The notes beneath the pieces were generated by a model. That model was given only the letters and a program-made list of their open reading frames with translations. It was not told the DNA's origin and searched no databases. From Lachnospiraceae bacterium (GTDB taxonomy: Bacteria; Bacillota; Clostridia; Lachnospirales; Lachnospiraceae), in assembly GCA_017482945.1 (NCBI GenBank), contig JAFUMF010000176.1:1-39466 (forward strand): DNA of 39,466 nucleotides. Direction: 5' to 3'. The position numbers and the translations under genes are program-made. Positions 18,992 through 22,257 of the stretch are shown one piece after another (the stretch's first letter is position 1; each line of letters opens with the position of its first letter).

Positions 18992-19033
18992 TAAAAACTC
19001 CCGCAGAAGGAGTAATTCTTCCTTCTGCGAGAA
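18992..19033 (-). terminator. Terminator of the surface protein gene
   Basis: On the minus strand, CGCAGAAGGA and TCCTTCTGCG pair around an 8-base loop, followed by GGGAGTTTTTATTT. It lies about 25 bases after the stop at 19056. Confidence 0.75.
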
Positions 19034-19055
19034 TCAATATTTCTTAAATCACTTT

Positions 19056-21398
19056 TTACTGAATCCAGACACCATTCTCATCTACACTGTAGCCATCAGG
19101 TGTTGTTGTGTTCACTAATAAAGAACCTAACGGACCACCAGAAACCGGATTGAAGTAGTACCACTTACCATCAATCTGTCTCCATCCTGTATACATCTGA
19201 CCTAATGTTCCATCCGATACAGAATGTAAATAATACCAGAGGCCACCATCTAATAACCAACCGGTCTTCATGTAACCAGTATCACCAAAATAATACCAGT
19301 TGTTTGTTCCGTTCCAATTAAGCTCAATCCATTTTGATACCGGATAAGAACCATCCGAATATCTGAACCACCAGCCTGTGGCATCCTGCTTCCAATCACC
19401 AGACTCCGCATTATCTGCTTTATCCTCTTTTACAGAAACAGATTCATAAACAGCATTATCATAATAATCGTTCCAATCAGAATAGTTATTATCATTGGAT
19501 GTGTTGTCCTCGACTTCTTCAGATTCACCTTCTCCTGCATTATTACCAGTACCTGTTTCTACAAAGACAAAAGTACTCAGCTTGTCTACCGCAAAAGATG
19601 CTACCCCATTGTTTACTGTTATATCTAATTTGATAGGTTCTTCGCCTTCATGGATATGGTATACTTCTGTTTTTTCCGGATCAAATTCAGTTGGAATCGA
19701 AACATCAACAAGAATTGGCAACGGCAGTACAGACTGCTCTTCACCGTCAGCTAATAATGTAATATCCAAAGAAGTTACTTTTTCGTACTCTTCTTTAAAC
19801 TCTTCATTGATGCTTTCTTCCTCTTCTGGAAGATCAACATTCAACTGCACCATATTTGTATCTGGATCCACAGCAAGTGCCGCACCTACAACGGATACTC
19901 CGTTGGTAATAGATCTGGCATTCGTAAGACTTCCCTGCAGCTTTTCTGCTGCCTCCTCAGATACTGCCGGTTCATCTGTCATCATTCCTTCTGTTGTCAA
20001 ATATGTTTCTTCTAATGTTGAAACTTCACTTTTATTAGACTTCCACTTATCCATAACTGCGTCTTTTGAATCTTCGTAATCTGGATCTGTTGTAATTTCT
20101 TTTAATGCCTTGACACCAGAAGCTTCCATACCAGTTCCGGAAGTCTTGAACAAACCATCTACAACTACTTCTGTAGAAGCAGCCACATCACTTCCCATCA
20201 CGATTTCAACCGTTATTGTCGCTTCACACTCATCGATAATCAGTACTACATCGACTTTACCAGGTGCTTTTGCTTCAAAATCTACAGACACAACACCATT
20301 TGCTTCCCTGCGCACATTATTTGCATTTGAATTGTTAGCAAGCAATCCTGGATTTTCATTTTCTTCAAAGCCACGTACCACATAAATATCATGGTGCTTC
20401 GTTAATGGAGAAGCATCACTTGCACTTGCACGTTCTACTTCATAATATAATGTCACCTTTTCTCCAACTGTAGTTTGCACATTGTCTTCGCGAGGTGTAA
20501 TCGCCAACACATCATCTTTTTTTGCTTCCTCAACTCCCGCGATAATCTGCGCTGCATTGGAATGTGTTACAATTTCAGCTTCCAGATCGTTTAAAGAATA
20601 GCCCTTTCCATCATTATCAAACCAGTACCAACCTTTAGGGCCTTTTGCTTCATCATCAAGATAAAGATACTGATTCTTTACCATATTTCCAAAATGAGAA
20701 TAGTATTCGTTCTTAGCGCCATCTTCATAACTATAACCATCATCAATCCGATAATAATCATCACCGTAAGTTCCTACCCATTGGCTCTGATACATTTTTC
20801 CAGATGGATTAAATAAAAAGAAGGCATTGCCAATTTTTCTTTGATTGGCGCGAATCGCACTACCTTTTGAATTGAACCAGTACCAGTCACCCTGGTCCAC
20901 TTCATATGACATCTGATATCCATCTTTCTTAACCATAACCCAGTTTTTAGTTGCGAGATGTCCATCTGGGTACGCATACATAATAGAATGAACACCACCA
21001 TCGCCTGCTCCATCATTAAATATTATATCATGGTCATAATCTTTAAATTCTACGATTTCATTTCTATTATCTGCATCATATTCCACTAAAAACAATTCAT
21101 CTTTTCGAATAGAACCATCCTCATCGATACAATACTGCTTTCCATTTACATTAATTAGCTGCGGTTCATCCACCCAGTCGCCATTGTTATCCAAATAGAA
21201 ACTTCCTTGCTTATCTGTAACAATCTGGTTTTTAATAAGCTCTCCCTCAGCACTGTAGCAATGCCAAACACCTTCTTCCACTTTCCAATTCCATTGTCTG
21301 TTTGTCGGTGTCTCATCCGCATAAGCCACTGTTGAAAAACTTCCGACCATCAACACAGCTGCCATCAGAATTGACGTTAATCGTTTCATCTTCTTCAT
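19056..21398 (-). CDS. Secreted surface protein with cell-wall/glucan-binding repeats
   Basis: A 780-residue protein. The signal peptide is MKKMKRLTSILMAAVLMVGS with cleavage after AYA (about residue 27). Aromatic repeats of the choline/glucan-binding type occur at both ends: roughly 35-285 (WYWFNSKGSAIRAN, FFLFNPSGKMYQSQW, GWYWFDNDGKGYSL) and 690-780 (GWWFRYSDGSYPVSKW, NNWYYFGDTGYMKTGW, GKWYYFNPVSGG). The central ~400 residues are acidic, with an Ig-like segment (VQTTVGEKVTLYYEVERASA) and helical parts. It has no LPxTG motif, so attachment would be non-covalent through the repeats. ATG 21398 follows AGAGGA, fits the signal peptide, and is preferred over 21419. Its promoter contains a nine-G tract. 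Confidence 0.88.
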   Translation of the reverse strand: MKKMKRLTSILMAAVLMVGSFSTVAYADETPTNRQWNWKVEEGVWHCYSAEGELIKNQIVTDKQGSFYLDNNGDWVDEPQLINVNGKQYCIDEDGSIRKDELFLVEYDADNRNEIVEFKDYDHDIIFNDGAGDGGVHSIMYAYPDGHLATKNWVMVKKDGYQMSYEVDQGDWYWFNSKGSAIRANQRKIGNAFFLFNPSGKMYQSQWVGTYGDDYYRIDDGYSYEDGAKNEYYSHFGNMVKNQYLYLDDEAKGPKGWYWFDNDGKGYSLNDLEAEIVTHSNAAQIIAGVEEAKKDDVLAITPREDNVQTTVGEKVTLYYEVERASASDASPLTKHHDIYVVRGFEENENPGLLANNSNANNVRREANGVVSVDFEAKAPGKVDVVLIIDECEATITVEIVMGSDVAASTEVVVDGLFKTSGTGMEASGVKALKEITTDPDYEDSKDAVMDKWKSNKSEVSTLEETYLTTEGMMTDEPAVSEEAAEKLQGSLTNARSITNGVSVVGAALAVDPDTNMVQLNVDLPEEEESINEEFKEEYEKVTSLDITLLADGEEQSVLPLPILVDVSIPTEFDPEKTEVYHIHEGEEPIKLDITVNNGVASFAVDKLSTFVFVETGTGNNAGEGESEEVEDNTSNDNNYSDWNDYYDNAVYESVSVKEDKADNAESGDWKQDATGWWFRYSDGSYPVSKWIELNWNGTNNWYYFGDTGYMKTGWLLDGGLWYYLHSVSDGTLGQMYTGWRQIDGKWYYFNPVSGGPLGSLLVNTTTPDGYSVDENGVWIQ

Positions 21399-21442
21399 AA
21401 TACGTCCTCTCTTTCTCATTGCAAATAAATGAATTTTACTAA

Positions 21443-21470
21443 ATTATACCCCCCCCCAGTATTAAGTCAA
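21443..21470 (-). promoter_or_regulatory. Promoter with poly-G spacer (likely phase-variable)
   Basis: Reading the minus strand, TTGACT (-35, 21465-21470) is followed by a 16-base spacer that ends in nine consecutive G (C at 21449-21457 on the plus strand), directly joined to TATAAT (-10, 21443-21448). Transcription would start near 21436, some 38 bases before the ATG at 21398. Addition or loss of one G shifts the spacer to 17 (optimal) or 15 (poor). Confidence 0.8.
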
Positions 21471-22228: not shown

Positions 22229-22257
22229 ATTATATTCCATAAGGAACAAAAAGTCAA
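22229..22257 (-). promoter_or_regulatory. tRNA-Lys promoter
   Basis: On the minus strand TTGACT (22252-22257) and TATAAT (22229-22234) are separated by 17 bases, about 42 bases before the tRNA 5' end. Confidence 0.8.

What the first reader, a model, noticed from the sequence alone, without database searches (positions are those of the whole stretch)
21443..21470. Nine-G tract between -35 and -10 of a surface-protein promoter: likely phase variation
The minus strand has TTGACT, a 16-base spacer ending in nine G, then TATAAT, directly upstream of a secreted cell-wall-binding protein. Homopolymers in this exact position switch expression of surface genes in Neisseria (porA) and Bordetella fimbriae by slipped-strand mispairing. 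One extra G would give the optimal 17-base spacing. I do not know of this layout described for a commensal clostridial wall-binding protein. The element is seen directly; the switching is inferred.
Basis: partly seen in the sequence, partly recalled or inferred. Interest (0 to 1): 0.85.

Follow-up and report, generated by a model that had tools for sequence, protein, structure and literature searches.

The report
Poly-G promoter switch for surface protein
A run of nine Gs sits inside the promoter of a cell-wall protein gene in a gut bacterium, where gain or loss of one G should change expression; the same layout, nearly always ahead of surface-protein genes, recurs across many uncultured gut bacteria, which suggests a widespread random on/off switch so far known mainly from pathogens.

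Summary
It is not isolated. Of four G>=8 tracts in this 2.7-Mb genome, three lie in exactly this position: this gene (9G, 16 nt), a paralogue (10G, 17 nt) and an ABC-import operon (9G, 17 nt). In 397 genomes of the family the layout gives 24 hits, the poly-C version 1 and the reversed control 0. A wider scan gave more than 118 loci, mostly in gut Bacillota. About 71% of linked genes encode exported proteins against 11% of background (p about 1e-35). Some genomes carry up to 20 copies; among copies with identical flanks, tract length differs in 11 of 15 groups. This fits promoter-spacer phase variation of the porA/tp0126 type. Switching itself (length mixtures in one population, expression per length) could not be tested. 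In these promoters the consensus 17-nt spacing is depleted (14 of 143, against 15 of 30 tract-free promoters), so the assembled state is usually off-optimum. The mechanism is known; such multi-locus poly-G repertoires in gut commensal Bacillota appear undescribed in the papers I could search.

The parts
21465..21470 (-). -35 hexamer TTGACT
   Evidence: Sequence; scan gives 11 of 12 consensus bases for the pair of hexamers.
21449..21464 (-). 16-nt spacer TAATACT + GGGGGGGGG
   Evidence: Sequence. The paralogue on C172 has TTATACA + 10 G = 17 nt.
21449..21457 (-). nine-G homopolymer, proposed hypermutable switch
   Evidence: tract length differs among matched promoter copies in other genomes.
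21443..21448 (-). -10 hexamer TATAAT, directly after the G tract
21434..21437 (-). predicted transcription start region (about 21436)
   Evidence: Inference: 6-8 nt downstream of the -10. Not measured.
19056..21398 (-). secreted cell-wall-binding protein, 780 aa (first in-frame ATG at 21419 would give 787 aa); N-terminal signal peptide, C-terminal choline/cell-wall-binding repeats
   Evidence: ORF; Pfam Choline_bind_3 8e-12 and Choline_bind_1 4e-7; NCBIfam part-matches to PspC/PspA repeats, far below cut-off; start chosen by ribosome-binding site (inspection).
18996..19035 (-). terminator-like hairpin after the gene
   Evidence: 16-pair stem followed by T run.
22229..22257 (-). internal comparison: tRNA-Lys promoter TTGACT-N17-TATAAT, same hexamers, no G tract, 17-nt spacer

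Best explanation
The nine-G tract is a hypermutable spacer in a sigma-A promoter. Slipped-strand mispairing during replication should add or remove single Gs, changing the -35/-10 distance (16 nt as assembled) and so the strength of transcription of a secreted wall-binding protein: random, reversible phase variation of the porA/tp0126 type. One added G would give 17 nt; one lost G would give 15 nt. The gene belongs to a small set in this genome with the same device (a paralogous surface protein at 17 nt, an ABC-import operon at 17 nt) and to a much wider class of poly-G promoters in gut Bacillota and some other phyla that mainly drive exported proteins. Shown: anatomy, recurrence, strand bias, link to exported proteins, tract-length differences between matched copies. 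Inferred: slippage in living populations, effect on expression, direction (16 nt weaker than 17), benefit to the cell.
For: Exact anatomy. Three of four G>=8 tracts in the genome are in this position. 24 hits against 1 (poly-C) and 0 (reversed) in 397 genomes. More than 118 loci in the species-wide collection, 150 distinct promoters in all. Linked genes exported in 84 of 118 against 43 of 384 background genes, OR 19.6, p = 1e-35, from many unrelated families (72 Pfam families). Genomes with 20 sites and with a tandem array of six ~1200-aa surface proteins, each with its own tract of 8, 9 or 10 G. Copies with identical -35 and non-G spacer in one genome differ in tract length in 11 of 15 groups; cross-species pairs differ by 1-2 G with the length of the rest of the spacer unchanged (8 v 9, 9 v 11). 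Published precedents show spacer tracts controlling expression: tp0126, best at 17 nt (PMC7864442), and porA, 11G > 10G > 9G (PMC3639595).
Against: No within-population or within-species length variation was seen, because only one genome per species was available. The two same-genus genomes have no such promoter; one homologue there has a tract-free promoter-like sequence with a 17-nt spacer. Several homologous pairs have equal tracts (8/8, 9/9). The 17-nt spacing expected to be optimal is rare (14 of 143), which the simple model does not predict without a further assumption. Slippage rate and promoter activity were not measured.
Confidence: 0.78

Rival explanations
1. A fixed promoter element: the G run tunes promoter strength (an off-consensus spacing for an otherwise near-perfect promoter, or helix geometry) and its length is stable in populations; differences between copies are slow evolutionary drift.
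For: Spacing is concentrated at 15-16 and 18-19 and avoids 17, as if near-consensus promoters were being toned down; several related pairs keep total spacing although the boundary changed (L084/L114 19/19, L080/L097 16/16).
Against: Damping does not need a pure G run, and G runs of 9-11 are known to vary in length in porA and T. pallidum. Lengths differ between otherwise identical copies in one genome. The strong link to exported proteins is typical of phase-variable genes.
Confidence: 0.13
2. The G tract is the recognition site of a dedicated regulator or alternative sigma factor that binds GGGGGGG next to the -10, so the set is a conventional regulon.
For: Strict strand asymmetry (24 G to 1 C); within one genome many promoters share the same non-G part (for example ATGACACTCC, AAAGTGCC); C is over-represented just before the tract (89 of 143).
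Against: The non-G part differs between genomes; tract length is not fixed; the layout is scattered over many phyla; both hexamers are ordinary sigma-A consensus. Shared non-G parts are also expected from gene-family duplication.
Confidence: 0.06
3. Chance placement or an assembly/sequencing artefact of poly-G.
For: Two-colour Illumina chemistry makes false poly-G and some G runs in other genomes lie at contig ends; the tract alone is not improbable in this window.
Against: The tract is internal, flanked by consensus hexamers; controls are 0 and 1 against 24; an artefact would not prefer the coding strand of promoters for exported proteins.
Confidence: 0.02

Closest known systems
Treponema pallidum tp0126 (OmpW homologue) promoter
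   Same: Poly-G between -35 and -10 of a surface-protein promoter; transcription best at 17-nt spacing (PMC7864442).
   Different: Spirochaete pathogen with an outer membrane; variation and reporter effect were measured there, not here.
Neisseria meningitidis porA promoter
   Same: Poly-G between -35 and -10 of a major surface protein; single-G changes grade expression (11G high, 10G 2-fold lower, 9G 13-fold lower at the surface; PMC3639595).
   Different: Gram-negative pathogen with one such porin promoter cited here, against sets of up to 20 promoters in some of the genomes found now.
Invertible promoters of clostridia (for example C. difficile pdcB, pdcC)
   Same: Promoter-level random switching in Clostridia, including signalling genes (review PMC11868660).
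   Different: Site-specific inversion between inverted repeats; no inverted-repeat pair closely brackets this promoter.
Bordetella fim C-tract (recalled, not looked up)
   Same: Homopolymer upstream of surface structures changes expression by slippage.
   Different: C tract lies between the -10 and an activator site; not two consensus hexamers.

Membership tests
Simple-repeat promoter-spacer phase variation (porA/tp0126 type) | Homopolymer lies between -35 and -10 | tested here: met
Simple-repeat promoter-spacer phase variation (porA/tp0126 type) | Hexamers are a plausible housekeeping promoter and spacing is within one or two nt of 17 | tested here: met
   TTGACT/TATAAT, 11 of 12 consensus, 16 nt.
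Simple-repeat promoter-spacer phase variation (porA/tp0126 type) | Drives a surface-exposed product | tested here: met
   Signal peptide and wall-binding repeats; class-wide enrichment.
Simple-repeat promoter-spacer phase variation (porA/tp0126 type) | Tract length is hypervariable relative to its flanks | tested here: inconclusive
   Met between paralogues and related species; not testable within one population or species.
Simple-repeat promoter-spacer phase variation (porA/tp0126 type) | Expression depends on tract length | not testable with these tools
   Needs reporter assay or RNA-seq by tract length.
Simple-repeat promoter-spacer phase variation (porA/tp0126 type) | Changes are frequent and reversible | not testable with these tools
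   Needs culture or longitudinal reads.
Invertible promoter | Inverted repeats bracket the promoter | tested here: not met
   Only a distant 11-nt pair (arms 21132 and 21788, 645 nt apart, one arm inside the gene) and a terminator-like hairpin.

The most novel reading that the evidence does not exclude
Poly-G promoter-spacer switching is a general strategy of gut commensal Bacillota and some other phyla (including Saccharibacteria and spirochaetes): whole surface repertoires, up to 20 promoters in a ~1-Mb genome and tandem arrays of six surface proteins, are under independent stochastic control, with spacers built so that the usual tract length lies off the 17-nt optimum, keeping most members weak or off until a slip of one or two Gs.
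Probability: 0.6. Interest if true: 0.85.

Novelty: new member of a known kind. Interest (0 to 1): 0.74.

Why it matters
[quoted passage not shown] The loci found here are a concrete, testable set of candidates in mostly uncultured gut commensals. If they switch, individual cells of one strain display different surface proteins and importers, which bears on phage resistance, immune recognition, niche use and why strains behave differently between hosts. Tract lengths can be read directly from existing metagenomes.

Tried and rejected
(1) Chance or artefact: rejected by reversed and poly-C controls and the own-genome census. (2) Invertible promoter: no bracketing repeats. Depletion of 17 nt survives (10 seen, 19.4 expected, p = 0.005). 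(4) Same-species length variation: sought in viral contigs (L207 and L209 share one phage promoter, both 7 G), phages and plasmids (no match) and by comparing the two genome collections (same assemblies, or no extended match between L025 and L123): nothing usable. (5) Protein query of genome contigs with the window protein: no relative. (6) Neighbouring genera of G097: few further sites. (7) Literature searches for a description in Firmicutes or gut commensals found none; the library is open-access only, so absence is weak evidence.

Full report
THE OBSERVATION. The minus strand at 21470-21443 reads TTGACT, TAATACT followed by nine G (16 nt), TATAAT. It is the only G>=8 tract in the window, and a TTGAC-N17-TATAAT match (TTGAC, its sixth base, a 16-nt spacer, TATAAT) occurs once in the window and never in 100 shuffles. 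The ORF list gives 19056-21419, 787 aa; the second ATG at 21398 has a GAGAGG ribosome-binding site and a classical signal peptide behind it (MKKMKRLTSILMAAVLMVGSFSTVAYA), so 780 aa is more likely (my reading). Pfam finds choline/cell-wall-binding repeats at the C-terminus. A terminator-like hairpin follows the gene. The nearby tRNA-Lys has the same two hexamers at 17 nt with no tract, a useful internal comparison.

THE SAME GENOME. The window is contig 147 of a 2.7-Mb, 250-contig assembly. It has only four distinct G>=8 tracts. Three lie in the same place: this one; contig 172, TTGACT-TTATACA-G10-TATAAT (17 nt), in front of a secreted protein 34% identical to the window protein over most of its fetched length; and contig 217, TTGACA-AATTACTC-G9-TATACT (17 nt), in front of a lipoprotein of 568 aa followed by two permease-like genes, that is an ABC importer operon (the assignment is from gene order and lipoprotein signal, Pfam gave no hit to a 477-aa part). 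The fourth, on contig 5, shows no such promoter. By contrast, of 30 G9+ tracts sampled one per genome from relatives (the window's own included) only two lie in such a promoter. The window gene and its paralogue thus carry the same kind of spacer with 9 and 10 G, at 16 and 17 nt.

RELATIVES AND CONTROLS. In 98 relatives the layout occurs 12 times in 7 genomes, reversed control 0. In 397 genomes of the family it occurs 24 times in 17 genomes, reversed control 0, and with poly-C in place of poly-G once. The bias to G on the non-template strand is therefore real; sites occur on both strands of contigs, so an assembly-orientation effect cannot explain it. The two same-genus genomes have none. One homologue there (37% identity) has a tract-free promoter-like sequence, TTGAAA-N17-TATAAT (read); a wall-binding paralogue in the own genome also lacks a tract.

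HOW FAR IT GOES. With the earlier loci this gave 150 distinct promoters. The ORF behind the promoter is exported (signal peptide, lipobox or single N-terminal anchor by a hydropathy rule) in 84 of 118 cases, against 43 of 384 other genes in the same loci: odds ratio 19.6, p = 1e-35. The proteins belong to 72 Pfam families at E <= 0.001: BspA-type leucine-rich repeats, MBG, collagen, VWA, InlB-type repeats, choline-binding repeats, but also ABC transporters, GGDEF proteins and a few regulators. The rule is a heuristic, not SignalP.

MULTI-LOCUS GENOMES. Whole-genome scans of 17 carriers (all controls 0) show 20 sites in a ~1.0-Mb genome (G498), 20 in Streptobacillus notomytis (G500), 9, 8 and 7 in three related genomes (G490, G489, G491). 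In G496 six tandem genes of 1138-1262 aa, with signal peptide and a wall-anchor-like C-terminus, each carry their own promoter with 8, 9, 10, 9, 9 and 9 G. In G489-G491 most sites precede members of one family of ~350-aa secreted proteins, with 7-11 G. The trait is patchy: 6 of 78 genomes in the family of G498.

TRACT LENGTH VARIES WHERE FLANKS DO NOT. In groups of promoters within one genome that share the identical -35 and non-G spacer, tract length differs in 11 of 15 groups, for example AATGACACTCC with 9, 9, 9, 10, 10, 11 G. Between species, L108/L119 have 8 and 9 G with closely similar surroundings, and L047/L072 have 9 and 11 G with an identical non-G part; other pairs are equal. This is evolutionary evidence for instability, not proof of switching in a population. 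Only one genome per species was available; searches of viral contigs, phages and plasmids gave no useful same-species pair.

AN UNEXPECTED PATTERN. Spacers run from 14 to 21 nt with peaks at 16 and at 18-19 and a dip at 17 (14 of 143). Tract-free TTGACA...TATAAT pairs in the same DNA peak at 17 (15 of 30; Fisher p = 2e-6). The dip persists when tract lengths are permuted among sites within the limits of the search (10 seen, 19.4 expected, p = 0.005) and in the whole-genome lists (12 of 116), though sites within a genome are not independent. Two readings: the assembled majority state is usually weak or off, as expected of a switch with a rare on state; or poly-G DNA shifts the optimum and near-consensus promoters are damped. 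The data do not decide. A C immediately before the tract in 89 of 143 sites is unexplained.

MECHANISM. Slippage in the G run changes the -35/-10 distance. For the window gene, +1 G gives 17 nt and -1 G gives 15 nt. Published cases establish the principle: in tp0126 of Treponema pallidum transcription is best when the tract gives 17 nt (PMC7864442); in porA 11G, 10G and 9G give graded surface expression (PMC3639595). Shown here: anatomy, recurrence, strand bias, association with exported proteins, length differences among matched copies. Inferred: slippage rate, effect on expression, direction, and advantage.

NOVELTY. The mechanism is a known kind, so the window locus is filed as a new member. 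What seems new is its distribution: large poly-G promoter sets in gut commensal Bacillota and others. My literature searches found no description, but the library is limited to open-access papers. [quoted passage not shown]

Noticed in passing
G000 C217 (L241:445-3258): A poly-G promoter (9 G, 17 nt) precedes an ABC-import operon in the same genome, so a nutrient importer as well as surface proteins may be switched.
   Followed up: partly
L242/L243 (G496 C4:5198-24398): Tandem array of six ~1200-aa wall-anchored proteins, each with its own poly-G promoter of 8-10 G.
   Followed up: partly
G076, G031, G063, G015: Related genomes with 95, 26, 19 and 14 G9+ tracts, mostly not in this promoter position; some sampled tracts lie in long open frames and could be frameshift switches.
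   Followed up: no
L208:10316-10341: A contig in the viral collection carries a poly-G promoter (14-nt spacer) ahead of a trimeric autotransporter adhesin with ESPR and YadA stalk domains.
   Followed up: partly
L199 (G010 C8): TTGACA-N20(10 G)-TAAAAT: same layout with an off-consensus -10, so the pattern counts are lower bounds.
   Followed up: no
143 promoters: The base just before the G tract is C in 89 of 143 cases; no explanation.
   Followed up: no
L112 (Blautia luti MSK.16.34): In a cultured human gut species the layout precedes a 550-aa ORF with a cytoplasmic N-terminus, possibly the PucR-type regulator found in the family scan (not checked singly), an exception to the exported-protein rule.
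   Followed up: no
L031, L037, L039 (G251): Three near-identical copies of a 7-G promoter segment in one genome, possibly part of a repeat element.
   Followed up: no
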